Positions 2,925 to 63,687 of a stretch of 64,000 nt of DNA are shown here, in pieces. Each line of letters opens with the position of its first letter. Within the stretch, counting starts at the first letter, position 1. The stretch covers positions 248,001 to 312,000 of the forward strand of contig JAQJVL010000082.1 of the NCBI GenBank assembly GCA_035578905.1. The letters are read 5' to 3'. A program made the translations under genes and the position numbers. The notes below the pieces were generated by a model. It was not told the origin of the DNA. It was given only the letters and a program-made list of their open reading frames with translations, and did no database searches. Origin of the DNA: Stictocephala bisonia. Taxonomy: Eukaryota; Arthropoda; Insecta; Hemiptera; Membracidae.

Positions 2925-3125
2925 TAATTAGTGTTAATCATACTAACTAAATATCGCTGCTGCTAATAACGTAGTAGGCGGGGCTTGTTACTGCAAGCCT
3001 GTGGCCTACCACATTCCTTGTTAGTATTAAAATGTTTAAATCAAATAACAATGTAGGGAAGAGTATTTCTCCATCTCACTTTCACTATTCTATGCATCTC
3101 TCTTGTCAATCAGTATATCACTTTT
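2925..3125 (-). repeat. dispersed repeat family B, inverted copy
   Basis: Read on the minus strand this contains GTGGTAGGCCACAGGCTTGC, AACAAGCCCCGCC and, at its other end, GAGAGATGCATAGAATAGTG. The same order of blocks occurs at 3430-3665, 19085-19345 and 30180-30395 on the plus strand. With the 3430-3665 copy it forms an inverted pair around about 300 bases. Confidence 0.55.
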
Positions 3126-3194
3126 TAAGTGACTTATCTATTTACATATAATTAAATCCATGTATTTTCAGTCTGAAGGAAGCGACGTTAAAGG

Positions 3195-3310
3195 ATAATG
3201 TTGGGGAAGAGTAATAGGTTACTGCCGGGAAAAGATACAGAGCTGAAGGCAAACATATTTGTTAGGCATAGGTTTTCGTCAGGCATTTACCCACTCCTCT
3301 CTTCCCTTCT
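3195..3310 (-). repeat. family D repeat, strongly decayed copy
   Basis: CAAACATATTTGTTAGGCATAGG near 3249-3271 matches the core seen inverted at 13.7 kb and directly at 17.66-17.69 kb. It lies between the two inverted family B copies. The match is short and the boundaries are uncertain. Confidence 0.35.
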
Positions 3311-3429
3311 CCTCATCTCCTCATGTCCTCTCACTCAACATACAGGACTGCTTTTGCTCTCATATTTCAAGAGAACTCTGACGTTATTAATTTATTGCAA
3401 TGTTATGTATTTTTAAGAAGAAGTTATTT

Positions 3430-3665
3430 AGTTGTTTATATGGATGGGCCACTTAGAAAGTAGCCTACTGAATGAACCTGTGCGAGAGAGATGCAATGAA
3501 GGGTGGAAGTGATATAGAGAACTACTCTTCCTCAATGTGTCTTTCCATTTAAAACATGTAATGGCAACTAGGAAGATGGTAGGCCACGGGCTGCAGCGCA
3601 GAACCAAGCCCCGCCACTATCACTACCACTACCACTACCACTACCACTGGGTTAGTTTGATTAAC
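3430..3665 (+). repeat. dispersed repeat family B
   Basis: This copy contains GGGCCACTTAGAAAGTAGCC, GAGAGAGATGCAATGAAGGG, GTGATATAGAGAACTACTC, GGCAACTAGGAAGATGGTAG and AAGCCCCGCC in order. All are shared with the copies at 19.1 and 30.2 kb. A (CACTAC)n microsatellite has grown near its end (3615-3649). It is non-coding in all frames. It is probably a SINE or MITE; terminal repeats could not be defined. Confidence 0.55.
3615..3649 (+). repeat. (CACTAC)n microsatellite
   Basis: About five copies of a six-base unit occur within the end of a family B repeat. Confidence 0.8.
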
Positions 3666-8580: not shown

Positions 8581-9060
8581 TTTAAGCAAGAAATAGCTAT
8601 TAAAATTAATAGTGTAAATGCCTTAAACAGTAGTTAATGTAAATTTATGATAAATAACTTACCCTATATCAATAACGTAATTTTCAATTGGTAAAAAATT
8701 TCATTTTTTAACAATAGTCTTTTAGACAATGTATTGTATTGTTGCTATAAATGAACATTTGATATATCTTACCTTTTAAGGCTGTATTTTGTTACCTGTA
8801 TATATATGATTAGTATTTACAGTAGTAATGTTTTATGAGGTAATTGTATGTACTTACGATTCATTGGGTGTACTATTAACATATACAGTAAAAGATGAAA
8901 TGGTTAACATAATGTTAAGATAAAACGTCAGTTTCCTAATAAGATAATAAGCTATCTTTATTCATACATTAACTATTCACTGCCGTTCTTAATGAACATA
9001 AAGTTAATTATAAAATAAATAGTTTTTTAATTAGCATAATACGTGTTGGTATATATATAT
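8578..9060. other. AT-rich DNA, nothing recognised
   Basis: No feature is supported. A short (AT)n run at 9051-9060 directly precedes the palindromic element. Confidence 0.6.
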
Positions 9061-9347
9061 AGTACAAATAAAACGTCACACAACACAAAATGTATTACAA
9101 TATAAGCACAACATGCACAAATATATTACAATACAAGTACAAACTGCACAAATATTATGGTGATCGATTTCGGTGAACAACGCTCACCTTCCTCAGAATA
9201 GAGGGATTCACAAAAGAATGGAAAATAGTGAATCCCTCTGGTCTGAGGAAGGTGAGCGTGGTTCACCGAAATCGATCACCATAATATTTGTGCATTTTGT
9301 ACTTATATTGTAATGCATTTTGTGTTGTGTGACGTTTTATTTGTACT
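9061..9347. mobile_element. palindromic element family P, intact copy
   Basis: The outer left sequence AGTACAAATAAAACGTCACA (9061-9080) is the exact reverse complement of the right end (9328-9347). The two arms stay largely complementary for about 130 bases each around a centre near 9215. The left arm carries an extra tandem duplication of about 35 bases (two copies of ATTACAATA-like sequence, 9092-9150). Each arm contains, in opposite orientation, a core resembling a hammerhead ribozyme. Decayed relatives lie at 29,688-29,880 and 37,868-37,995. No protein is encoded, so it is non-autonomous. Penelope-like retroelements are known to carry hammerheads and to form inverted arrangements, which makes them one candidate source; a foldback DNA transposon is the alternative. 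Confidence 0.75.
9239..9281 (+). ncRNA. hammerhead-ribozyme-like core (right arm of P element)
   Basis: CTGAGGA (9243-9249) fits the conserved CUGANGA box. It is followed by a stem II of GGTGA (9251-9255) with TCACC (9263-9267), and then GAAA (9268-9271). A one-pair stem III with loop TCGA leads to U-C at 9276-9277, the expected cleavage position. TGGT (9239-9242) can pair with ACCA (9278-9281) as stem I. The stem III region ATCGAT is self-complementary, as in minimal hammerheads thought to work as dimers. The motif is short and activity is inferred, not shown. The left arm has the same boxes on the minus strand (9168-9196) but its stem I pairing is lost. Confidence 0.5.
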
Positions 9348-10346
9348 GTAAAATAAATAGTTATACGCTCAAATTCACTTTTTATAACAGTTATGTAAAA
9401 TGACATAATTTAACCTCTTCAAATTACTCGTAAATATAACATCTATGTACACTTATGTAATTGTTTCTAAAACTTCAGCATAAACATCTGACTGTACTTA
9501 ACGTACTAAATAACTCACCATTCTATCAAAACTTAAATCGACATTGTCATATTTGAATTTAGTATCAAATTTGAATAAAAAAAACCTGTAAAATTAAATT
9601 TATATAACACACTAATACAAAAAAATCATTCTTTAGTCAAATTAGGAAAGATCTAAGAAAGAATTTAAGAATAAATAAACATATAAAACAACTATCTATC
9701 AGAAAACCACAAGCTATTTATCAAAACACGACTCTCTTACTTTGTAACCTGGTCATTCGTATGTATAACGGAACTGAAAGGAAAATCTTGTTTTTCAGCT
9801 TGATTTTCCCCTATGTAAAGAAAACCTGAGGAGAATACCAACTCCTGACTCACTTTTGAACTTGACAGTTATCTTAGATCCACATCTATCAATATGATAT
9901 TGATTATATCTTATATCAGTATATGTTTCAATATACGTATATCCAACTGTAACTGTGTTGTACTGTTACTAATGTCTTACGGCAGTCAAAAGTATCGTAA
10001 TGCAAACTCCAGTAGAGCTTTTTTGATTATTTAAAAAGTTGCCAAACTACACAAACCATTATACTTTTTATCTGCAGTTCAGGCGTATATAATTGTTTGC
10101 CTACCAATCTTATGATAACTACCAGGAATGCTTTTGGGTCGGTTGATAATATTTCAATTAGATTTCTGGTAGATACTTTACTTGCAACATTTCCCATAAT
10201 CTTTGTATTTTAAATTTATTTTAGTCATATTGTACATTTTATACTATAAGGAAATCAGGTAATACTCATCCTTTTTAGATAATTTGTATTCCTCTATCTT
10301 TTTCAGATTTTCGGCCCATAAGTATTATTTCTGATCTGTCTAAATA
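9348..10346. other. AT-rich DNA, nothing recognised
   Basis: No coding frame or element boundary could be supported. Confidence 0.55.
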
Positions 10347-26072: not shown

Positions 26073-27024
26073 ACCATACTTCATGTCTAGAAGATATAAT
26101 GTATAGACTTCGTTATTCCTATACTTTGACCATACTTCATATCTAGAAGATATAATGTATAGACTTCGTTATTCCTATACTTTGACCATACTTCATGTCT
26201 AGAAGATATAATGTATAGACTTCGTTATTCCTATACTTTGACCATACTTCATGTCTAGACGATATAATGTATAGACTTCGTTATTCCTATACTTTGACCA
26301 TACTTCATGTCTAGAAGATATATTGTATAGACTTCGTTATTCCTATACGTTGACCATACTTCATGTCTAGAAGATATAATGTATAGACTTCGTTATTCCT
26401 ATACTTTGACCATACTTCATGTCTAGAAGATATAATGTATAGACTTCGTTATTCCTATACTTTGACCATACTTCATGTCTAGACGATATAATGTATAGAC
26501 TTCGTTATTCCTATACTTTGACCATACTTCATGTCTAGAAGATATAATGTATAGACTTCGTTATTCCTATACTTTGACCATACTTCATGTCTAGAAGATA
26601 TAATGTATAAACTTCGTTATTCCTATACGTTGACCATACTTCATGTCTAGAAGATATAATGTATAAACTTCGTTATTCCTATACGTTGACCATACTTCAT
26701 GTCTAGAAGATATAATGTATAAACTTCGTTATTCCTATACGTTGACCATACTTCATGTCTAGAAGATATAATGTATAAACTTCGTTATTCCTATACGTTG
26801 ACCATACTTCATGTCTAGAAGATATAATGTATAAACTTCGTTATTCCTATACGTTGACCATACTTCATGTCTAGAAGATATAATGTATAAACTTCGTTAT
26901 TCCTATACGTTGACCATACTTCATGTCTAGAAGATATAATGTATAAACTTCGTTATTCCTATACGTTGACCATACTTCATGTCTAGAAGATATAATGTAT
27001 AAACTTCGTTATTCCTATACTTTG
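26073..27024 (+). repeat. 56-bp satellite, 17 copies
   Basis: Exactly 17 head-to-tail units of 56 bp (952 bp) start with ACCATACTTCATGTCTAGAA. Copies 1-9 carry TATAGACTT and mostly ACTTTG. From copy 10 (26,577) onward they carry TATAAACTT, with ACGTTG in all but the last. Copies 4 and 8 share a private TAGACGAT variant, suggesting a four-unit duplication step. Units are nearly identical, so expansion is recent. No frame is open across the array. Confidence 0.97.
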
Positions 27025-31285: not shown

Positions 31286-32599
31286 ATGTAATATACTGGG
31301 AAATATAGAGCGCCTGCTAGTTACCAATGGTTTGATTACACTTGTTAAAAGAGGGCCAACAATATTAAACCAATTTATACTTTAAATCACCGTAATTATT
31401 TATATGAAAATATTATATTCCTAAGACGATTAAATATAAAAATACGCTTTAAAGAGAATTAAATAATAGTTTAACAAAGAAATTTGTGAAATATTGATAG
31501 CCTAATTAATAAGAGGGGTCTCATTTGTATGGTGCGTTGTTTGTTTTAGTTGTCGTTTACAGAAGTTAGTGTACATAAAGGACAGATACAAATTTACCAT
31601 ACATATTGTTCCGTGTCCCAGGGAGACGTCACAGGGAGGGGGTCACAGACAAACTGTTTAACCCTTTATCTGGGGTCACAGAACACGTGGTAGAGGGGTT
31701 ACTGCTGACACTGTGCTGACAGTCAAATATTTGTTTTAATTTGATAGGGGAGAAAATCATTTAACTACAACCACCCCAACAATTATGGGGTGAGTTAATT
31801 AAATTATGCTTCTCGAATGTAAAAACATGGTTTTTATGTCTTATGTATCAATATATTAACTGATCAAGATCTAGTGTGTGTTTTGAGTATAATTAAAAAT
31901 TAACTGAAATTAAATGAAGTTCCTTAATATTACATAGTGGAAAATCTGTGTGTATTAACGAATTTAAGTACCAAAGAAATGGGATCTTTTCCGTTAATTC
32001 ACTACCACTATTTCTTCCGTTAATTTACTAGTTCTATTTGATAGTATTCTATTGCTCTAAAAAATTTTCCCAACTCATTTTTACGTCCACTGTGGTATTC
32101 CTTATCCGATATCGCTTGCCTTATCTTTCGCTTTCCAAGAACTTACACACGGAGAGCGCATTCGGCGGTAAGTCAATAATTGGATTTACCAGTTTGTGAT
32201 CAACTTTAGTAGCCACCTAACCTGACCTAAATTAACCTAACCGTAATGGCAACAACACAAATAGTGGTAGTGAAGTAACGGAGAAAGTCCAAGAAATGAT
32301 GTGTAACAGTTACACATGCCAAACAATAAAAGCATTGTTGTATTATTCTAATATTAATAATACAAAAGTAAACATATTAATTTAATAGTAATATTATTTT
32401 AGCAATGCGTGAGGAAAAATTTACAAATTTAAATATTAATCTACACATTTATTAAAAGCTATTAATTTTTTAATAGTTTCAAATATCTGCATTCTGAATC
32501 ATACTTATCCTAATAGTATTAATAATTGATTCATTGTTATTTTTTCTATAATTATCAAAGTATAACCAACAAAGTTCAATGTTAGTAGGCTAATATTGT
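31286..32599. other. unannotated, partly G-rich
   Basis: A GC-richer patch at about 31,610-31,720 carries two GGGGTCACAGA-type blocks. No gene was recognised. Confidence 0.5.
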
Positions 32600-33374: not shown

Positions 33375-33802
33375 CATTTTTCAAAATGGCGGCCATTTTA
33401 AACTTTTAAAGCCAAATATCTTAATAACCTTAAATTTTACAAAAAACTTGTAAGTTACAAAAACGTTTAAGAATTTATTTCTATAAATATAAATAATTAT
33501 ATAAAAATTTTTAAGATTGAACAACTATTAACTGAGAAATTATAATTTTTATCAAATAAAACATGCTTGATATTAATAAAATTGAAAACTTTAGTTTACA
33601 ATTTTGATAAAAATTGTAATTTCTCAGTTAATAGTTGTTCAATCTTAAAACTGTTTATATAATTATTTATAGAAATAAATTCTTAAACTTTTTTGTAACT
33701 TACAAGTTTTTTTTAAATTTAAGGTTATTAAGATATTTGGCTTTAAAAGTTTAAAATGGCCGCCATTTTGAAAAAGATTGTTGTAAAAAAATGAAATTTA
33801 AA
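33375..33802. mobile_element. palindromic MITE, ~178-bp arms
   Basis: The left arm begins TTTTCAAAATGGCGGCCATT near 33,379 and runs to about 33,556. The right arm at about 33,602-33,778 is its near-perfect reverse complement and ends GGCCGCCATTTTGAAAA. A 45-base loop separates them. TAGTATAG occurs at 33,367-33,374 and 33,803-33,810 and could be an 8-bp target duplication. The right side then carries about 24 unpaired bases, so that boundary is uncertain. No coding frame is present. Confidence 0.8.
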
Positions 33803-38699: not shown

Positions 38700-39700
<1,001 letters not shown>

Positions 39701-47043: not shown

Positions 47044-47051
47044 CAATGTGC

Positions 47052-47196
47052 GGGTCTGTTTCAGAAGAGGACCCCCACGCTTGGTTAGGTTAGGTTAGGT
47101 TAGGTTAGGTTAGGTTAGGTTAGGTTAGGTTAGGTTAGGTTAGGTTAGGTTATAGTAAATTTTTCAAGCGTGGGGGTCCTCTTCTGAAACAGACCC
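47052..47196. mobile_element. 145-bp MITE carrying a TTAGG telomere-repeat array
   Basis: Two perfect 32-bp terminal inverted repeats (47,052-47,083 and 47,165-47,196, left one starting GGGTCTGTTTCAGAAGAGG) surround about 13.6 uninterrupted TTAGG units (47,085-47,152) and 12 AT-rich bases. The element is bounded by a perfect 8-bp direct repeat, CAATGTGC, at 47,044-47,051 and 47,197-47,204, abutting both ends exactly. Perfect arms, perfect flank duplication and a pure array all point to a recent insertion. An 8-bp duplication fits hAT, P and Merlin-type transposases; GG-starting ends are not the usual hAT form, so the superfamily is open. TTAGG is the ancestral insect telomere motif. Confidence 0.92.
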
Positions 47197-47204
47197 CAAT
47201 GTGC

Positions 47205-50073
47205 AATCGTTCTTTCAAGTATTAATCCTAGAGAAGTAAGTTGAGATGTAGGCCTACTATTTTCATTAGTCTTCTTACATGTTAACTTATATGTGATTTG
47301 GAATGTTTAAACTAGGAGATTATAATTATCATATTTCTTTCATATCTAGGATCATAATTGACCGAGAGATATGTAAAATATAAATATTGATTAATTAACA
47401 CTAACAATTAGCAATTATACTCGTTATATGCACTTTGTAAGTTATTCTCTCACCAACCATAAAACACTTCACAATACAGTTCCACCCAACTTTGCTTTAG
47501 TGGATGATCTTAAATTAACATAAACGTGTTGATAGATATAAAATCTAGCTTTCATGTAGTCAATCAATAAAACCCACTGTAAAAACAATGTTTGAAATAA
47601 AATATTTTATCAACATGCTTCAAACTGTGGACGTGTAAAACTATATTATACATCAGTATACAAATTTTCTTTAAAAAATACTTAAAAAGATATCATATAA
47701 GTTAAATAGTAATTTATAAATTTATTATAAATTTAAAAAAAGAACATACATTTTGTTTTTATTTCATTTTTTCTGTATTTAGTCAACCATCTTTTATACC
47801 ATGGTAAGAATTATTTAGAATGGGACTACTGATTATGCTACTATGTTATTTTATTCAAACAAATTAATATACTTAAAAATACAAACATTTATTATGAACT
47901 CTTCAAACATTTTTATAAATTATATTATAGTACATATTAATGTTAATGTTTGTTGCTATTTATGATATTCAAATTTAAATTTTTCATATCTTGCTATTTA
48001 TATGTCCTTTATTCCATTGTGTACCTATAGATAGTCTGAATAAACATTATAAAATAAAATTTAAAAAAAACACGCTATATAACTATATAAACCAGGTGTA
48101 GTCTTTTCCGTTAACTACCAAGACCTGCTATGCCATCATTACGCACCGAAAAGTTAATATAAATAAAGATATTTGTATATGCATTTAAATGATATTTTAA
48201 TTTAGATAAAACAGGCTCATGTGTAGTATGTCCCTGGGGAACTGTTCCATCTGATATGCTGATTACCAAAGGCTCACCCGGGTACATTTTATAGAACCCA
48301 GAGAGCCTCGGTTTGTAAAAGCTCGTATGTATTCGGTACTCTTTTGTCCAAAATGTTTGCTGAAACCATCATTTCCATCACTGACACAAAAAACAGTACT
48401 TCTACTTTTTATTCCATATATGCAAATCACGAACATAACTGTTTTTATTTTTTTTTTTTTTTTTAGTAAGTTCTTCCATGTATAATCTGAGCGTATAATT
48501 TCACTCAATAATTTGTATTTTTATGTAATTGGTAAGGTTTTTTTTTATTTCATATTTTTTTATATTAATAGCTTCTAAGATTTGATGATTTTTTTTCAGT
48601 TCATATATGAACATTTCTAAGCTATTCTATGACAAAGCAATTTCCAATATGTAAGTTTGTAAGGAATAGACTTTAGCCGCAGACGAAGACGCTTTGAGCA
48701 CAAGTTGCACATAACATTTATCCTACAGTTGAAATACAGTAGACTATATAAAAAGTAACAAGTAATAAAAACATAACTAGTAGGCGAACGCGTGAGAACT
48801 TTTATTAAAAATGATCATAAACATCTTCCTATTTTACAAACATGACACTTAATTTTACGGTTTAAGCAACATTTCAACGCTACATCAGCTGTTTTGTTTA
48901 CACCGAGCGTTGCCAACTTAATTCTTTCAAGCTTACACGACGTTGATTGGCTATGGCTAATATGTGTATTACCTATATTATGAAGTTAAAAACTTGGAGT
49001 GTGGTGAAGTAAAACGAGTGCAGTAAAGTATTTAAATGCAGGAGTCACCTACTTCGCGACTTCTTTTGAGTGCAGGAAGAACCACTTTGTTATGCAAATG
49101 TAGGAAAATAACTATTTCCGAGTAGACATTTTAATTCTTGAATGTAGCTACACACTACATTTAAATCCACAAGTCCCTACATGCATTCTGACTTTATGCA
49201 CTAAAGTTGATAGCTAAAGCTTACGGATATTTACAGGATTTATACTTTATTTCCATATTCTATTCCATGTATGTTTCTAACTTTACTCCCCAAAAATATT
49301 TCCGAATATGTAATTTCTGTAATTAAAATATTCGAAAATTTTTAATGCAATGTAAAGTTTACAAAAATTATTTTGGTTTACTAAACCACATAGAAAACCA
49401 ATGGGACAAAATATATGCATTCCGAGTTTAGGCATTACTGGTGATAGTTTAATATTTTGATATTTAGTTAGATATTTTTATCATTTATACTGGATACTGT
49501 TTTAGATTTTCGTATACTTGTTTTATTCACATAAATATTGAAGAACAATACATTAACTTGTTAAACTACCGTACACGGGCAGAGTTGGTCCAGCCTAAAG
49601 GACCAACCTTGAGGAGAGGTTAATAGAAGCAGAGTGGGGTTACTTCTCTAAAAACGTCATTCTGATCAAGTGATTGAAAATAATAAAACATTAATTACCA
49701 GTGTAATATAAATTTAATTTCTTAATATTGCCTGTCTCTCTAATTCATCGTTACTAGTTAATAACTATTTCTGAATCTTCTGTTTATCAACTTTTATTGT
49801 ACGGTAAACTTGAAAGTTGAAGACAGGTCTAATAAACACTAATGATTGTTTACTAATAGTACAATTTAAATAATGTTAATTTAATAAATATCTTATTTAC
49901 GTAAATGATCTCAATAAAATGAACTGAAAATATTCTCTTTTTGTAACATCTGAGTGATCATAGCATAATAATATTAAATAATAAAAACTGAAACTTTAAT
50001 ATTTGTTTAGGGAAGTGTAAATGTATATTAGTCTTTGGACGCAAAACTTAACTAGTCGTAAGTAGTTACAACA
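47205..50073. other. AT-rich DNA without genes
   Basis: No gene was seen. A small hairpin, GTTGGTCC/GGACCAAC, lies near 49,583-49,606. The 81-codon minus-strand frame near 48.4 kb has a lysine run from a poly-T tract and is rejected. Confidence 0.55.
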
Positions 50074-53000
50074 GATAGTAGTCGAGCTCGCGAGCACGGT
50101 TAAGCTAGGCCGTCTGTACAATACCCGGGTTACATCAGTAAGCTGGCACAACGCAGTAATCCTCCTAAAGGCTAAATGTTAGACCAGTTAGTAGTAGAGC
50201 TCGTGAGCACGTTTAGGCTAGGACGTCTGTACAACACCCGGGTTACATCAGTAAGCTGGCACTTCGCAGTAATACTACTAAAGGCTAAATGTTAGACCAG
50301 TTAGTAGTAGAGCTCGTGAGCACGTTTAGGCTAGGACGTCTGTACAACTACCGGATTACATCAGTAAGCTGGCACTTCACAGTAATCCTACTAGAGGCTA
50401 AATGTTAGACCAGTTAGTAGTAGAGCTCGTGAGCACGTTTAGGCTAGGACGTCTGTACAACTACCGGGTTACATCAGTAAGCTGGTACTTCACAGTAATC
50501 CTATTAGAGGCTAAATGTTAGACCAGTTAGTAGTGAAGCTCGCGAACACGGTTAGGCTAGGACGTCTGTACAACTACCGGGTTACATCAGTAAGCTGGCA
50601 CTTCACAGTAATCCTACTAGAGGCTAAATGTTAGACCAGTTAATAGTAGAGCTCGTGAGCACGTTTAGGCTAGGACGTCTGTACAACACCCAGGTTACAT
50701 CAGTAAGCTGGCACTTCAGAGTAATCCTACTAGAGGCTAAATGTTAGACCTGTTAGTAGTAGAGCTCGTGAGCACGTTTAGGCTAGGCCGTCTGTACAAC
50801 TTCCGCGTTACATCAGTAAGATGGCACATCGCAGTAATCCTACTAGAGGCTAAATGTTAGACCAGTTAATAGTCAAGCTCACGAGCACGGTTAGGCTAGG
50901 TCGTCTGTACAACACCCGCGTTACATCAGTAAGCTGGCACTTCACAGTAATCCTACTAGAGGCTAAATGTTAGACTAGTTAATAGTCAAGCTCGCGAGCA
51001 CGGTTAGGCTAGGCCGTCTGTACAACTTCCGGGTTACATCAGTAAGCTGGCACTTCACAGTAATCCTACTAGAGGCTAAATATTAGACCAGTTAATAGTC
51101 AAGCTCGCGAGCATGGTTAGGCTAGGCCGTCTGTACAACTTCCGGGTTACATCAGTAAGATGGCACATCGCAGTAAATCTACTAGAGGCTAAATGTTAGA
51201 CCAGTTATTAGTCAAGCTCGCGAGCACGGTTAGGCTAGGCCGTCTGTACAACACCCGGGTTACATCAGTAAGCTGGCACTTCACAGTAATCCTACTAGAG
51301 GCTAAATGTTAGACCAGTTAGTAGTCGAGCTCGCCAGCACGGTTAAGATAGGCCGTCTGTACAACTACCAGAATACATTAGTAAGCTGGCACTTCACAGT
51401 AATCCTACTAGAGGCTAAATTTTAGACCAGTTAGTAGTCAAGCTCACGAGCACGGTTAGGCTAGGCCGTCTGTACAACTCCCGGGTTACATCAGTAAGCT
51501 GGCACTTCACAGTAATCCTACTAGAGGCTAAATGTTAGACCAGTTAGTAGTCAAGCTCGCGAGCACGGTTAGGCTAGGCCGTCTGTACAACTACCGGGTT
51601 ACATCAGTAAGCTGGCACTTCACAGTAATCCTACTAGAGGCTAAATGTTAGACCAGTTAGTAGTCAAGCTCGCGAGCACGGTTAGGCTAGGCCGTCTGTA
51701 CAACACCCGGGTTACATCAGTAAGCTGGCACTTCACAGTAATCCTACTAGAGGCTAAATGTTAGACCAGTTAGTAGTCAAGCTCGCGAGCACGGTTAGGC
51801 TAGGACGTCTGTACAACTACCAGGTTACATCAGTAAGATGGCACATCGCAGTAATACTACTAGAGGCTAAATGTTAGACCAGTTAATAGTAGAGCTCGTG
51901 AGCACGTTTAGGCTAGGACGTCTGTACAACACCCAGGTTACATCAGTAAGCTGGCACTTCAGAGTAATCCTACTAGAGGCTAAATGTTAGACCTGTTAGT
52001 AGTAGAGCTCGTGAGCACGTTTAGGCTAGGCCGTCTGTACAACTTCCGCGTTACATCAGTAAGATGGCACATCGCAGTAATCCTACTAGAGGCTAAATGT
52101 TAGACCAGTTAATAGTCAAGCTCACGAGCACGGTTAGGCTAGGACGTCTGTACCACAACCGGGTTACATCAGTAAGCTGGCACTTCACAGTAATCCTACT
52201 AGAGGCTAAATGTTAGACTAGTTAATAGTCAAGCTCGCGAGCACGGTTAGGCTAGGCCGTCTGTACAACTACCGGGTTACATCAGTAAGCTGGCACTTCA
52301 CAGTAATCCTACTAGAGGCTAAATATTAGACCAGTTAATAGTCAAGCTCGCGAGCATGGTTAGGCTAGGCCGTCTGTACAACTTCCGGGTTACATCAGTA
52401 AGATGGCACATCGCAGTAAATCTACTAGAGGCTAAATGTTAGACCAGTTATTAGTCAAGCTCGCGAGCACGGTTAGGCTAGGCCGTCTGTACAACACCCG
52501 GGTTACATCAGTAAGCTGGCACTTCACAGTAATCCTACTAGAGGCTAAATGTTAGACCAGTTAGTTAGTAGTCGAGCTCGCCAGCACGGTTAGGCTAGGC
52601 CGTCTGTACAACTACCAGAATACATTAGTAAGCTGGCACTTCACAGTAATCCTACTAGAGGCTAAATTTTAGACCAGTTAGTAGTCAAGCTCACGATCAC
52701 GGTTAGGCTAGGCCGTCTGTACAACACCCGGGTTACATCAGTAAGCTGGCACTTCACAGTAATCCTACTAGAGGCTAAATGTTAGACCAGTTAGTAGTCA
52801 AGCTCGCGAGCACGGTTAGGCTAGGCCGTCTGTACAACACCCGGGTTACATCAGTAAGCTGGCACTTCACAGTAATCCTACTAGAGGCTAAATGTTAGAC
52901 CAGTTAGTAGTCAAGCTCGCGAGCACGGTTAGGCTAGGCCGTCTGTACAACTACCGGGTTACATCAGTAAGCTGGCACTTCACAGTAATCCTACTAGAGG

Positions 53001-54466
53001 CTAAATGTTAGACCAGTTAGTAGTCAAGCTCACGATCACGGTTAAGCTAGGCCGTCTGTACAACACCCGGGTTACATCAGTAAGCTGGCACTTCACAGTA
53101 ATCCTACTAGAGGCTAAATGTTAGACCAGTTAATAGTCAAGCTCGCGAGCACGGTTAGGCTAGGACGTCTGTACAACTACCGGGTTACATCAGTAAGCTG
53201 GCACATCGCAGTAATCCTACTAGAGGCTAAATGTTAGACCAGTTAATAGTCAAGCTCACGAGCACGGTTAGGCTAGGCCGTCTGTACAACTACCGGGTTA
53301 CATCAGTAAGCTGGCACATCGCAGTAATCCTACTAGAGGCTAAATGTTAGACCAGTTAATAGTCAAGCTCGCGAGCACGGTTAGGCTAGGACGTCTGTAC
53401 AACTACCGGGTTACATCAGTAAGCTGGCACTTCGCAGTAATCCTACTAGAGGCTAAATGTTAGACCAGTTAGTAGTCGAGCTTGCGAGCACGGTTAGGCT
53501 AGGCCGTCTGTACAACACCCGGGTTACATCAGTAAGCTGGCACATCGCAGTAATCCTACTAGAGGCTAAATGTTAGACCAGTTAATAGTCAAGCTCGCAA
53601 GCATGGTTAGGCTAGGCCGTCTGTACAACACCCGGGTTACATCAGTAAGCTGGCACATCGCAGTAATCCTACTAGAGGCTAAATGTTAGACCAGTTAATA
53701 GTCAAGCTCGCAAGCACGGTTAGGCTAGGCCGTCTGTACAACACCCGGGTTACATCAGTAAGCTGGCACATCGCAGTAATCCTACTAGAGGCTAAATGTT
53801 AGACCAGTTAATAGTCAAGCTCGCAAGCATGGTTAGGCTAGGCCGTCTGTACAACACCCGGGTTACATCAGTAAGCTGGCACATCGCAGTAATCCTACTA
53901 GAGGCTAAATGTTAGACCAGTTAATAGTCAAGCTCGCAAGCACGGTTAGGCTAGGCCGTCTGTACAACACCCGGGTTACATCAGTAAGCTGGCACATCGC
54001 AGTAATCCTACTAGAGGCTAAATGTTAGACCAGTTAATAGTCAAGCTCGTGAGCACGTTTAGGCTAGGACGTCTGTACAACTACCGGGTTACATCAGTAA
54101 GCCGGCACTTCCCAGTAATCCTACTAGAGGCTAAATGTTAGACCAGTTAATAGTTAAGCTCGTGATCACGTTTAGGCTAGGACGTCTGTACAACTACCAG
54201 GTTATATCAGTAAGCTAGCACATCGCAGTAATCCTACTAGAGGCTAAATGTTAGACCAGTTAATAGTTAAGCTCGTGATCACGTTTAGGCTAGGACGTCT
54301 GTACAACACCCGGGTTACATCAGTAAGCTGGCACTTCCCAGTAATCCTACTAGAGGCTAAATGTTAGACCAGTAAGTAGTCGAGCTCGCGAGCATGGTTA
54401 GGCTAGGCTGTCTGTACAACACCCGGGTTACATCAGTAAGCTGGCACTTCACAGTAATCCTACTAG
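50074..54466 (+). repeat. 113-bp satellite, ~39 copies
   Basis: The monomer includes GGGTTACATCAGTAAGCTGG, CACAGTAATCCTACTAGAGG and AGCTCGCGAGCACGGTTAGG, and repeats every 113 bp. Main variants are GAGCACGTTTAGGCTAGGAC versus GAGCACGGTTAGGCTAGGCC. There is higher-order structure: a block of about seven monomers at 50,641-51,440 recurs with its private variants at 51,884-52,690, an offset of 1243 = 11 x 113 bases. Near 53.56-54.02 kb GCAAGCATGG and GCAAGCACGG monomers alternate as a 226-bp dimer. The array is non-coding in all frames and less AT-rich than its surroundings. Confidence 0.97.
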
Positions 54467-54689
54467 GTCACATTTTTTTTTAGACAGGGGATGGACAGAA
54501 CTGTTATTTATTGTACAATTGGTTTGAGTAGGTTTCCTGAAAATTCTGTATGAAAGTTTGTTATGATCACAAGTTGGTTCGATATATATAAAATCGAAAA
54601 TAATATCTAATGAATTACTGTAATACAGCCTTCTCATAGGTACTTACATACACAGTGGTATTGACTTCAAAGTATTGTAGTTTTTCAAA

Positions 54690-55180
54690 ACCCATACACC
54701 CCAAACACACCCATACACGTGCATTGGTAAATGCCCACACACCCACCCATACATATGCAGTGTTATTAACCCACCAGCCCACTCATACATGCACTGTGGT
54801 ATTGACCCACTCGCCCACCCATACATGCACTGTGGTATTAACCCACCCACCCACCCATACATGCACTGTGGTATTAACCCACCAGCCCACACATACACGT
54901 ACTGTGGTATTGACCCACCCGCCCACCCATACATGCACTGTGGTATTAATACCAAAATACCAAAATGCGTGTATGGGTGGGTGGGTGGGTCAATACCAAA
55001 GTGCGTGTATGGGTGGGTCAGTACCAAAGTGCGTGTATGGGTGGGTCAATACCAAAGTGCGTGTATGGGTGGGTCAGTACCAAAGTGCATGTATGGGTGA
55101 GCGGGTGGGTCAATGCCACTACGTGTATGGGTGAGCGGGTGGGTTGTGCCACTACTTGTTTTGGTGAGCGGGTGGATCAA
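54690..55180. repeat. 36-bp minisatellite in head-to-head inversion
   Basis: The left half (54,690-54,947) carries the unit as ACCCACCCGCCCACCCATAC and the right half (54,948-55,180) as its complement, GTATGGGTGGGTGGGTCA. The switch point is the perfect 12-bp palindrome GGTATTAATACC at 54,942-54,953. The unit has no stop in several frames and its full length is a multiple of three. The many overlapping 60-160-codon open frames here are therefore artefacts. Confidence 0.93.
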
Positions 55181-55447
55181 TATCAAAGTGATGACAATGG
55201 TGCCTCTTTATTTTCTCTCCAAACAAAAATCCTTTATAGTTAATATTGTCTTCAACGAGGTAATTTTCATAATATATCAATCCGCGTTGTTTCATAAGTC
55301 AATGTGTATGCATTCTCAAATAGTGAGAATTTATTTTAGTATAGTTTGGTCGCTTATCGTAAATAACTGTTAAATACTTGACAATAGTTACATTTACTTA
55401 ATCGTTTAGATAAATTATTAATCAATGTTACACCCGAATACTACTGT

Positions 55448-56285
55448 AAGTGTATGGGTGGGTGGGTCATTACCACTCATTACCACTGTACATGTATTGG
55501 CGGGAGGGTGGGTCATTACCACTGTACATGTATGGGCGGGAGGGTGGGTCAATACCACTGTATGTGTATGGGTGGGTGGGGGGGTCAATACTCCTGTACG
55601 TGTATGGGCGGGCGGGTGGGTCAGTGCCACTGAACGTGCATGGGCGGGCAGGTGGGTCAATGCCACTGAACGTGTATGGGCGGGCGGGTAGTTCAGTGCC
55701 GCTGAACGTGTATGGGCGGTTAGACAATCAATAACACTACGTGTATGGGTGGGTCAATACCACTGTACGTGTATGGGTGGGTCAATACCACTGTACGTGT
55801 ATTGGTGGGTGGGTTGGTCATTAACACTGTACGTGTATGGGTGGGTCAATACCACTGTACGTGTATGGGTGGGTGGGTGGGTCATTAACACTGTACGTGT
55901 ATGGGTGGGTCATTACCACAGTACTGTATTGGTGGGCGGGTGGGTCATTACCATACCACTGCACGTGTATGGGTGGGCAGGTGGGTCATCACCACTGTAC
56001 GTGTATGGGTGAACGGGTGGGTCATCACCACTGTACGTGTACGATTGGGCGGGTGTGTCATCACCACTGTACGTGTATGTATTTGTTAATAACTTGATAA
56101 CCATTACCACTATAACAGTACCACTGAACGTATATGAGCGGGTGGGTGGGTCAGTGCCAATGTACATGTATGGGTGGGCGGGTCAGTGCCACTGAACGTA
56201 TATGGGTGGGCGGGTGGGTTAGTGCCAATGTACGTGTATGGGCGGGCGGATGGGTCAGTGCCACTGAAAGTGTATGGCCAGAAAT
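55448..56285 (+). repeat. 36-bp GTATGGGTGGG minisatellite, direct block
   Basis: About 23 units of the type GTGTATGGGTGGGTGGGTCA plus AATACCACTGTAC occur with length variants that lack one or two GGGT steps. At 55,867-55,881 four GGG runs are separated by single T, an ideal quadruplex sequence. Confidence 0.93.
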
Positions 56286-56289
56286 GCTT

Positions 56290-56710
56290 AGGTTAGGCTA
56301 GGCTGTCTGTACAACACCCAGGTTACATCAGTAAGCTGGCACTTCACAGTAATCCTACTAGAGGCTAAATGTTAGACCAGTTAGTAGTCGAGCTCGCGAG
56401 CATGGTTAGGCTAGGCTGTCTGTACAACACCCGGGTTACATCAGTAAGCTGGCACTTCCCAGTAATCCTACTAGAGGCTAAATGTTAGACCAGTTAATAG
56501 TCAAGCTCGCGAGCACGGTTAGGCTAGGACGTCTGTACAACTACCGGGTTACATCAGTAAGCTGGCCCTTCCCAGTAATCCTACTAGAGGCTAAATGTTA
56601 GACCAGTTAATAGTCAAGCTCGCGAGCACGGTTAGGCTAGGACGTCTGTACAACACCCGGGTTACATCAGTAAGCTGGCACTTCGCAGTAATCCTACTAG
56701 AGGCTAAATG
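56290..56710 (+). repeat. 113-bp satellite, 3.7 further copies
   Basis: Same monomer and orientation as the main array. It ends mid-monomer at AGAGGCTAAATG, directly before the sequence resembling family A. Confidence 0.95.
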
Positions 56711-56890
56711 ATGGGGAGAATGTAGGCGATGGGTTCTGCTCTCAGTCCTCCTGGTAACTCCTCGTAATACATGGTATCCATGGTGAGTGGTGGCCAACAG
56801 TGTCTAATGAATTAGCTAAGTTAATGCTTGTCATCTAGCCTGAATTCAAACCAATGTAACGTGGTTTAGATTCCACTCAAATTATAGGTT
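56708..56890 (+). repeat. possible family A-related fragment
   Basis: GTAGGCGATGGGTTCTGCTC here resembles ATAGGCGATAGGTTCTATTC just before the family A copy at 2.49 kb. GTGAGTGGTGGCCAACAGTG and TTGTCATCTAGCCTGAATTC have the order of the family A blocks. It is strongly diverged. It forms the right edge of the satellite. Confidence 0.4.
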
Positions 56891-61478: not shown

Positions 61479-61884
61479 CTTTGAAATTGATTACCTACGT
61501 AACATGCAATTAGTCAACCAAAGACAACCTACGTGTAAATATGCAATGTAATAGGAATAGTCGAGACAGTAATTGAAATAGTCAGGCAAGTATGCTACTA
61601 CTTCTGGTTGAAACTGTAGCACTCCACCACTGGACCACAAAACAGCTGATAATTAGAGACGCAACATTTAAACTTGGATAAGATATAACTGTTTTTGTGT
61701 AATATTAATGGCAATACTTTGTTAATTTGTTACTTCAAACAATGTTTAGCTAGACATTCAGAAGCAATCAATCTTAGTCATTGAACTTTTAGTGATGTTT
61801 GTAAAGTTCGTATTTAAGTTTCGTTATTAAAATTAAGAATAAACCACCACCGCAACATAGAGTACATAATATAAAGTGCCCATA
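61479..61884. other. unannotated
   Basis: No feature could be supported. Confidence 0.6.
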
Positions 61885-62155
61885 ATACACGAACATTGGT
61901 ATTGACCCATTCGCCCACCCATACACAAACATTGGTATTGACCCACCCGTCCGCCCATACACGAACATTGGTATTGACCCACCCGCCCGCCCATACACGA
62001 ACATTGGTATTGACCCACCCGCCCGCCCATACACGTACAGAGGTATTGAAGTGACCTGCCCACCCATACACGTACAGTGGTATTGACCCACCCGCCCACC
62101 CATACACGTACAGTGTTATTGACCCACCCGCCCACCCATACACGTACAGTGGTAT
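61885..62155 (-). repeat. 36-bp GTATGGG minisatellite, inverted block
   Basis: About seven and a half units of ACCCACCCGCCCGCCCATAC plus ACGAACATTGGTATTG, the same 36-bp unit as at 54.7-56.3 kb but in reverse. The 100-128-codon minus-strand frames here are repeat artefacts. Confidence 0.93.
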
Positions 62156-62493
62156 TGTATACTGTAGTGTTATAAAGTGTTTTTCTAATTCATGGGACAC
62201 GATTCAATGGTGAAAGTTTACAATTGGTTGAAGTTGCATTTATAAATCAGTAACGTTTCGTCAATATGAATTTTTGCAAATGCTCATCATTACTTATTAC
62301 ATTACGACAAAATGATTCATGTTCAATGTTATATATATTGTGGAAGCTGCTCTGTATCTAAGAGAAACATAGTTAGGTTAGGTTACATATGTTTTAAATG
62401 TTTAGTTTAGTTTGGTGAGGGGAAGGAAATCTCTGAGGGCATTCCTAGATTGCACTTCAACCTTAGGTTTATTTTGTTCCCCTGTTGCCTACT
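62156..62493. other. unannotated
   Basis: No feature could be supported. A single GGTTAGGTTA occurs near 62,375. Confidence 0.55.
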
Positions 62494-63235
62494 AGAATAA
62501 TAATAATAAATGTTTTATTGCATATTTTAACATTCGTATAATGCATTGCAATCGTCATTTCTATGAAAAATTTTAACTAAACTAAAATTATTCATCCACG
62601 CTTACATCCAGATCCACATTCATACGTACAATAAGCATGCATTCACACACCCATTCTTTCAAAAAAGAAAAACAATGTTTCCCACTAAGCCAGCCTACTC
62701 GTGCAATTTTACTAGATCTCACAGTTATGTGCCAAAAACTCGTCTGAACTGTAGAATGCCTCTGCAATCAACACTTGCTTCAGACGAGATTTGAACGCCT
62801 TCAGCGTAGGAGCACATTTGATTGAATTTGGCAGTTTGATGACAAATTGAACACCTGCCTGTGCGGGCTATCGTTCGTAAGCTACCGTCCTGTGTCTCCA
62901 AATTCGGTAGTTACTCCTGCCTCTAGTCTCATAAGAGTGTATGTCGCAACCTCTTATGGACTCGCATTTTGATTTAAAAAAGAGAAATGTTTCAAGAATG
63001 TAGAGGCAGGGTAATGTCAACAAGTTCAGGTTTTTGACTGCTGCTCTGCACGACTCTCTCTGCCTAAGTTTTGCGATTATTCGAACCGCTCTTTTTTGAA
63101 GAACAAAAATTCTTGAGAGATTCGCGTTGGAGCAACCTCCCCACACCACCAGTCCGTAGGAGAGATGTGGGTAAATTACTCCGTAGTACGCCGTCATCAG
63201 TACCTGAGTTGGGCAATACTCTGACATGGGGTATC
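62494..63235 (-). mobile_element. LINE 3' end: reverse transcriptase C-terminus, 3'UTR and (ATT)n tail
   Basis: The minus-strand frame opens near 63,227 with YCPTQVLMTAYYGVIYPHLS, then VWGGCSNANLSRIFVLQKRA and RIIAKLRQRESCR. This is the part of LINE reverse transcriptases just after the catalytic core. A TAG at 62,868-62,870 stops it, but the same frame continues with AGVQFVIKLPNSIKCAPTLK and FKSRLKQVLI to the natural stop at 62,712-62,714, so only one nonsense change breaks it. The 3'UTR holds AATAAA near 62,515 and ends in (ATT)n at about 62,494-62,510. The 5' end is truncated. Jockey/CR1-type LINEs are likely. Confidence 0.9.
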
Positions 63236-63278
63236 TATTCCAAGCGGCTTAGCCAGCTCTAAAATCTTTTTCCTCTGA

Positions 63279-63687
63279 CTAGCTACCATTATTTCTTCTG
63301 AGAGCTCGTCCCCGAATTACCATTCTCCTTCTTCTGAGCTCCAGAGCTTCAGACTCAGTTAATAGATGTTCGGCAGACTCAAGAGCCTCACCACAAACTC
63401 GGCAACTGGTGTCTTCACTGTAGAGACCAATCTTTGCCAGATGTTTCCTGAAGTGGCTGCGTCCAGTAATGTATGCAATCACCATCTTGATGTCATTCTG
63501 ATTCATGGCGGTAAATGAGTTGGTCAGCGTAGGGTTAGATCCCCTCACCAGAGATTTTGTAAAGATGTGGCCGTGAAACCACTGCCATCTATTGTGGTGG
63601 CGATTTCTAGCCAAGTTCAGTATTTCAGCCTTGGCAAGTACTTACAAATGGGAGTCCTTGCTCCAAACTTGGCTAGGAGATCAGCCT
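63279..63687 (-). mobile_element. LINE with RNase H domain: C-terminal remnant
   Basis: On the minus strand ADLLAKFGARTP (63,685-63,650) is the end of an RNase H domain. After a frameshift the frame reads through ITGRSHFRKHLAKIGL and CRVCGEALESAEHLLTE to a stop at 63,279-63,281. This is the RNase H plus C-terminal zinc-knuckle order of I/R1-type non-LTR elements. The last cysteine of the CCHC knuckle is replaced by serine (CX2CX8HX4S). It differs from the adjoining LINE fragment, which has no RNase H, so two elements lie one after the other. Upstream sequence is lost near 63,690. Confidence 0.85.

What the first reader, a model, noticed from the sequence alone, without database searches (positions are those of the whole stretch)
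47044..47204. A recent MITE that carries a telomeric TTAGG array between perfect inverted repeats
The sequence shows two identical 32-bp inverted arms, a pure (TTAGG)13.6 array in the loop and a perfect 8-bp target duplication abutting both ends. Interstitial telomere repeats are usually explained by break repair or fusion. Here the array is cargo of a mobile element, which would give a transposition route for seeding telomere repeats inside chromosomes. The unit would also fold into a hairpin with a telomeric loop.
Basis: partly seen in the sequence, partly recalled or inferred. Interest (0 to 1): 0.85.

Follow-up and report, generated by a model that had tools for sequence, protein, structure and literature searches.

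The report
Mini-transposon carrying telomere-type TTAGG repeats
In what looks like leafhopper-type insect DNA, a short transposon with no genes of its own carries a pure run of the insect telomere repeat and appears to have jumped in recently, and an older element of the same build nearby also holds TTAGG-like repeats, so jumping elements may help scatter telomere sequence inside chromosomes.

Summary
Element E1 (47052-47196, 145 bp) has perfect 32-bp inverted ends, an exact 8-bp target duplication (CAATGTGC) and 14.0 pure GGTTA/TTAGG units inside. A scan of the window for an exact 8-bp duplication plus 20-nt inverted ends (at least 16 of 20) found two elements. The second, E2 (31982-32290, duplication AAGAAATG), also has GG ends, 28 of 32 matching arm bases and a decayed TTAGG tract. 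These tracts are the best two of four in the window. Simulated windows gave 0.01 to 0.015 such elements each. GG ends plus 8-bp duplications fit the Merlin superfamily; no transposase was seen, and hardly any search for one was possible. The decisive test, copies in the host genome, could not be run: the genome search failed in 14 of 14 tries, and exact-pattern scans of viral and prokaryotic contigs found none. A MITE with the array as internal cargo is well supported. Spread of telomere repeats by a family of such elements is plausible, not shown. Slippage growth of a short internal motif explains the array at least as well as capture from a telomere. Reviews already propose transposon origin for some interstitial telomere repeats.

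The parts
47044..47051 (.). left 8-bp target site duplication CAATGTGC of E1
47052..47083 (+). E1 left terminal inverted repeat, 32 bp, begins GGGTCTG
   Evidence: 100% complementary to 47165-47196
47083..47152 (+). pure (GGTTA/TTAGG) x 14.0 array, G-rich strand on +, abutting the left arm
   Evidence: TRF; best TTAGG tract in the window, score 70
47153..47164 (+). A+T-rich 12-bp spacer TAGTAAATTTTT between array and right arm
   Evidence: sequence
47165..47196 (-). E1 right terminal inverted repeat, 32 bp
47197..47204 (.). right 8-bp target site duplication CAATGTGC of E1
31974..31981 (.). left 8-bp target site duplication AAGAAATG of second element E2
31982..32013 (+). E2 left terminal inverted repeat, begins GGATCT
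   Evidence: 32 nt, 88% complementary to 32259-32290
32215..32242 (-). E2 internal decayed TTAGG tract (28 nt, 3 mismatches to a perfect array), 16 nt from the right arm
   Evidence: second-best TTAGG tract in the window, score 19
32259..32290 (-). E2 right terminal inverted repeat, begins GGACTT on the minus strand
32291..32298 (.). right 8-bp target site duplication AAGAAATG of E2

Best explanation
E1 is a young non-autonomous cut-and-paste DNA transposon (a MITE), most likely moved in trans by a Merlin-type transposase that recognises the GG-ended 32-bp inverted repeats and makes an 8-bp staggered cut. The TTAGG array lies inside the element and entered this site with it, at least as a seed. 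It is passive cargo. Shown: ends, duplication, array, and a second element of the same build with a TTAGG tract. Inferred: the transposase superfamily, the presence of the array at insertion, and movement of other copies. For the array's origin I favour slippage growth of a short subterminal GGTTA/TTAGG-like motif (about 0.45) over telomerase-assisted filling of an internal break when the MITE was born (about 0.35); the two are listed as rivals for the origin only.
For: Perfect 32-bp arms and exact 8-bp duplication. Strict scan: 2 elements with exact 8-bp duplication in the window (lengths 60-1500, duplications of fewer than three different letters left out; to 3000 bp, leaving out starts in satellite regions 50065-56800 and 61800-62200 and ends with fewer than 4 G/C in 20), against 2 hits in 200 first-order and 3 in 200 third-order simulated windows and 0 in an earlier 40. 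Both elements hold a TTAGG tract, and these are the two best of the four tracts that score at least 11. Two intervals of these lengths placed at random 200000 times cover both tracts with frequency 1.5e-5; the second tract falls in either with frequency 0.64% (done after the fact). In both elements the G-rich strand runs inward from the nearer end. Decay fits cargo: E2 arms differ at 4 of 32 positions, its tract at 3 of 28. GG ends, TIRs of 24-462 bp and 8- or 9-bp duplications are given as traits of Merlin (PMC8101967, passages).
Against: No second copy of E1 is known (the host genome was not searchable). No transposase was seen. E2 passes the scan exactly at its threshold (16 of 20) and is missed by a 13-of-16 version, which instead lists 33505-33654 inside a long palindrome as its only other exact 8-bp hit. 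E2 was noticed through its TTAGG tract before the scan. TIR similarity of E1 to E2 is weak: 17 of 32 to the left arm, 14 of 32 to the right; letter shuffles of the E1 arm reach these with frequency 0.00016 and 0.009, but real GG-starting 32-mers of the window do so more often: 25 of 3828 reach 17 before masking, 7 of 2911 reach 17 and 101 reach 14 after masking tandem arrays and both elements. A third tract (62372-62385) lies in no element found by the scans, so short TTAGG runs also occur outside such elements.
Confidence: 0.72

Rival explanations
1. Origin of the array: a microsatellite grown by replication slippage from a short internal GGTTA motif of an ordinary MITE, before or after insertion; the match to the telomere unit is incidental to telomere biology.
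For: The array abuts the arm through CTTGGTTA, one base off the unit, and ends in GGTTATAG, so a short seed is easy to imagine. The window is rich in other simple repeats, and a 14-bp TTAGG run exists outside the elements found.
Against: A second element carries the same motif, and these two tracts are the best in the window. Purity of 14 units suits recent expansion equally well, so this does not decide.
Confidence: 0.45
2. Origin of the array: telomerase (or reverse-transcribed telomeric RNA) filled a double-strand break inside a longer parent element; the repaired, internally deleted derivative became a MITE with a telomere core.
For: Telomerase-linked insertion of telomere repeats at breaks is proposed for mammals, including nucleotides in register at the break (PMC7215372, passages). 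The G-rich strand continues inward from the nearer end in both E1 and E2, as telomerase addition to that side would give (agreement has a chance of 1 in 2).
Against: Needs the same rare event in two elements, or one event in a common ancestor; TIR similarity is weak.
Confidence: 0.35
3. One-off rearrangement: an inverted duplication around an interstitial telomere repeat, not a transposon.
For: Only one copy of the arm pair is known.
Against: Exact 8-bp duplications at both E1 and E2; simulated windows give 0.01 to 0.015 such structures each.
Confidence: 0.08

Closest known systems
Merlin superfamily MITEs (insect MITEs, iMITEdb)
   Same: GG termini, 8-bp duplications, TIR length in the 24-462-bp range (PMC8101967 passages); no coding capacity
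   Different: No transposase or parent seen; 145 bp against an average of about 383 bp for insect Merlin MITEs (PMC5199201 passages); a telomere-type array makes up about half the element
Short interstitial telomeric sequences (s-ITS)
   Same: A short run of the common arthropod telomere unit with no telomere shown nearby
   Different: Bounded by transposon ends and a target duplication; reviews list transposon remnants as one proposed origin beside break repair and slippage (PMC9693754 passages; PMC6410037 passages)
MITEs with internal microsatellites, for example in flies and moths (recalled, from no call)
   Same: Simple repeat inside a short non-autonomous element
   Different: Here the unit is the common arthropod telomere unit
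Telomere-bearing elements of ciliates (recalled, from no call)
   Same: Transposon with telomere-type repeats and inverted ends
   Different: There the repeats sit at the very ends; here they are internal

Membership tests
MITE | Short, with terminal inverted repeats and a target site duplication | tested here: met
   145 bp, 32-bp perfect TIR, exact 8-bp duplication
MITE | No coding capacity | tested here: met
   Longest open stretch in six frames: E1 22 aa, E2 55 aa
MITE | Many copies in the genome | not testable with these tools
   Genome search unreachable in 14 of 14 tries; exact patterns found no copy in viral contigs or in genome contigs, which holds bacteria and archaea
Merlin superfamily | Termini begin with GG | tested here: met
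   E1 GGGTCTG at both ends, E2 GGATCT and GGACTT
Merlin superfamily | 8- or 9-bp target duplication | tested here: met
   8 bp in both; no 9-bp duplication
Merlin superfamily | TIR of 24 to 462 bp | tested here: met
   32 bp in both
Merlin superfamily | Mobilised by a DDE_Tnp_IS1595-type transposase | not tested
   No parent element available; 5 of 37 listed ORFs of the window were scanned against Pfam and none matched a transposase
hAT superfamily | 8-bp duplication of type nTnnnnAn and ends of type CA (both recalled) | tested here: not met
   CAATGTGC and AAGAAATG do not fit, ends are GG
Interstitial telomeric sequence | Array of the host's telomere unit | tested here: inconclusive
   TTAGG array shown. 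Host telomere unit inferred: TTAGG at chromosome ends in nine Issidae species, same suborder (PMC5088349 passages); host placed by hits of one ORF to leafhoppers

The most novel reading that the evidence does not exclude
A lineage of Merlin-type MITEs in leafhopper-like insects regularly carries telomere repeats next to one end, born by telomerase-assisted repair of internally broken parents, and has distributed many interstitial TTAGG arrays by transposition.
Probability: 0.25. Interest if true: 0.78.

Novelty: new variant of a known kind. Interest (0 to 1): 0.52.

Why it matters
Transposon origin of interstitial telomere repeats is listed in reviews as a proposal, supported there by transposons lying beside such repeats (PMC6410037, PMC9693754, passages). 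An element with intact ends, an exact duplication and the array as its core would be direct anatomical evidence. If copies exist, it would make the proposal testable, and it bears on reading interstitial TTAGG signals as relics of chromosome fusion.

Tried and rejected
Copies elsewhere: the 23-nt arm in viral contigs and genome contigs; a gapped arm pair in viral contigs and genome contigs; arm-array junction and E2 arm in viral contigs. All were exact patterns, and these collections are viral or prokaryotic, so absence says little. Control: 17 stretches of viral contigs with at least 22 bases of the array; 0 of 17 lie between inverted ends with an exact 8-bp duplication, by the same test that finds E1 and E2. 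By eye several share flanks (L001, L006, L007, L014; L005, L015; L008, L013), so about 12 are distinct, and in L001, L002, L006, L010 and L014 the array lies within about 250 bases of an end of the stored stretch, which cuts the test short.

Rejected: a plain rearrangement (duplications at two elements); hAT (ends and duplication pattern, both recalled). An element around 62372: arms 62226-62247 and 62441-62462 enclose the tract and begin with GG, but are only 73% complementary and their 8-bp flanks agree at 5 of 8 by eye. A looser scan (13 of 16 end bases, low-complexity ends dropped) gave 13 rows with at most one mismatch in an 8-bp duplication and 6 in a 9-bp one: E1, parts of three long palindromes near 9.1, 33.5 and 39.3 kb, and a minisatellite region from 54.7 kb. 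With an exact 8-bp duplication it gave 2 rows, E1 and 33505-33654. E2 was not among them and, by coordinates, no row but E1 spans a TTAGG tract. Five other hairpin-like regions that I picked (2996-3592, 9056-9354, 33377-33775, 38768-39631, and 39237-39483 inside the fourth) hold 1 TTAGG pentamer in all and none of the four tracts. Scans with 3- to 6-bp duplications listed many nested or chance pairs; among them two shorter registers of E1, and one 2614-bp pair with a 4-bp duplication that encloses E2's tract and is taken as chance.

Papers: the arm's first 13 bases occur in 0 papers. No title or abstract that I saw describes a TTAGG-carrying MITE in the listings (6 of 6; 2 of 2; 12 of 12; 4 of 4; 20 of 58 listed; 6 of 6; 12 of 308 listed). 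Only searches had MITE or its full name among the terms. Passages only were read of PMC6191289, PMC6410037, PMC9693754, PMC7215372, PMC8101967, PMC5199201, PMC2884549 and PMC5088349. The library lacks most subscription papers, so prior description cannot be excluded.

Full report
Observation. The arms 47052-47083 and 47165-47196 are 32 nt and perfectly complementary, with 81 nt between them. The array is 47083-47152, 14.0 copies of a 5-bp unit at 100%. CAATGTGC flanks both ends exactly. The duplication is 8 bp and cannot be lengthened, since the preceding bases are A on the left and C on the right. The first 23 nt of the arm match nowhere else in the window at up to 3 mismatches. Folded as single-stranded DNA the element forms the hairpin with an unpaired TTAGG loop; this is expected of any perfect inverted repeat and says nothing on function.

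A second element. Comparing E1 with the window led to a decayed TTAGG tract at 32215-32242 on the minus strand. An inverted-repeat search around it gave arms 31982-32013 and 32259-32290, 88% complementary. The flanks, not used to choose the arms, are an exact 8-bp duplication, AAGAAATG. E2 is 309 bp and begins with GG at both ends. Its left arm seems to have a partial second copy next to it, 32016-32040. A scan of the window for exact 8-bp duplications with inverted ends (20 nt, at least 16 matching, 60-1500 bp, duplications of fewer than three different letters left out) returns these two elements only, and none at 7, 9 or 10 bp. A repeat to 3000 bp, leaving out starts in the large satellite regions and ends with fewer than 4 G/C in 20, agrees and finds none at 7, 9, 10 or 11 bp. 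Simulated windows give 2 hits in 200 (first-order) and 3 in 200 (third-order), and 0 in an earlier 40. E2 sits exactly at the threshold, and a 13-of-16 version of the scan misses it and finds 33505-33654, within a long palindrome, as the only other exact 8-bp case.

TTAGG and the two elements. An ungapped score against a perfect array finds four tracts of score 11 or more in the window: E1's (70), E2's (19), 62372-62385 (14) and one at the edge of a 113-bp satellite, 56288-56302 (12). The best two are inside the two elements. Random placement of intervals of these lengths, 200000 times, covers both with frequency 1.5e-5, and covers the second tract with frequency 0.64%. The second figure is the fairer one, since E1 was given, but E2 was noticed through its tract. 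The scan that finds E2 does not use the tract. In both elements the G-rich strand points inward from the nearer end; agreement has a chance of one half. E2's arms differ at 4 of 32 positions and its tract departs from a perfect array at 3 of 28, so arms and tract may have decayed together; the numbers are small.

What kind of element. Merlin elements have GG ends, TIRs of 24 to 462 bp and 8- or 9-bp duplications (PMC8101967, passages). Both elements meet these. Insect MITEs have been sorted into superfamilies by ends and duplications (PMC5199201, passages). The hAT pattern (recalled) is not met. Whether E1 and E2 are relatives is unsettled: 17 of 32 bases agree with E2's left arm and 14 of 32 with its right. 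Letter shuffles reach these with frequency 0.00016 and 0.009. Against GG-starting 32-mers of the window, 25 of 3828 reach 17 without masking, and 7 and 101 of 2911 reach 17 and 14 after masking tandem arrays and both elements. No transposase search of the genome was possible; 5 of the 37 ORFs of at least 80 aa listed in the window were scanned against Pfam, with one weak zf-RVT match and no transposase.

Host. The 126-aa ORF at 62868-63248 has 31 database relatives; 15 carry a species name, 1 Graphocephala atropunctata (a reverse transcriptase domain protein) and 14 Homalodisca vitripennis, the other 16 none. Both species are leafhoppers of Cicadellidae. The host is probably an auchenorrhynchan; this is an inference from one mobile-element fragment. 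TTAGG marks chromosome ends in nine Issidae species of the same suborder (PMC5088349, passages).

Mechanism. Shown: an insertion with precise ends and target duplication, with the array between the ends. Inferred: cut-and-paste movement by a transposase supplied in trans; presence of the array, or its seed, in the moving unit. Origin of the array: slippage from a short motif (the left junction reads CTTGGTTA, one base off the unit) or telomerase-linked filling of a break inside a parent element. The latter is proposed for mammalian interstitial repeats (PMC7215372, passages). I put slippage at about 0.45 and break filling at about 0.35. Perfect arms and duplication argue that the insertion is young, but a pure array may also have grown after it.

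Known or new. Reviews name transposon insertion among proposed origins of interstitial telomere repeats and note that such repeats are often flanked by transposons (PMC9693754 and PMC6410037, passages). I saw no description of a TTAGG-carrying MITE in the listings; the lists of 46 and 54 were capped (20 of 58, 12 of 308). The element is best called a new variant of a known kind: a probable Merlin-type MITE with a telomere-type core.

Limits. The collections that were scanned are viral or prokaryotic, with exact patterns. In 17 viral-contig stretches with TTAGG arrays, about 12 of them distinct by eye, 0 of 17 arrays sit in such an element.

Noticed in passing
62372-62385: A third short TTAGG run (GTTAGGTTAGGTTA) between weak GG-starting inverted stretches (73%); no exact duplication at their flanks.
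   Followed up: partly
50065-54466 and 56291-56710: 113-bp satellite, 38.9 and 3.7 copies, whose unit holds GGTTAGGCTAGG, a telomere-like motif.
   Followed up: no
33377-33775: Long nested palindrome, 399 bp, outer arms 97% complementary over 69 nt, another pair of 69-nt arms inside at 96%; looks like a foldback element without TTAGG.
   Followed up: partly
38768-39631 and 39237-39483: Long inverted-repeat element whose outer flanks remain complementary beyond the scanned ends, with a second hairpin inside; no TTAGG.
   Followed up: partly
62868-63641: Probable remains of a reverse transcriptase element, relatives in sharpshooter leafhoppers; the piece 63279-63641 weakly matches zf-RVT below its cut-off.
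   Followed up: partly
54734-56277 and 61885-62157: G+C-rich minisatellites built on CCCACCCGCCCACCCATACA-like units, in both orientations.
   Followed up: no
26073-27024: 56-bp tandem repeat, 17 copies at 98%.
   Followed up: no
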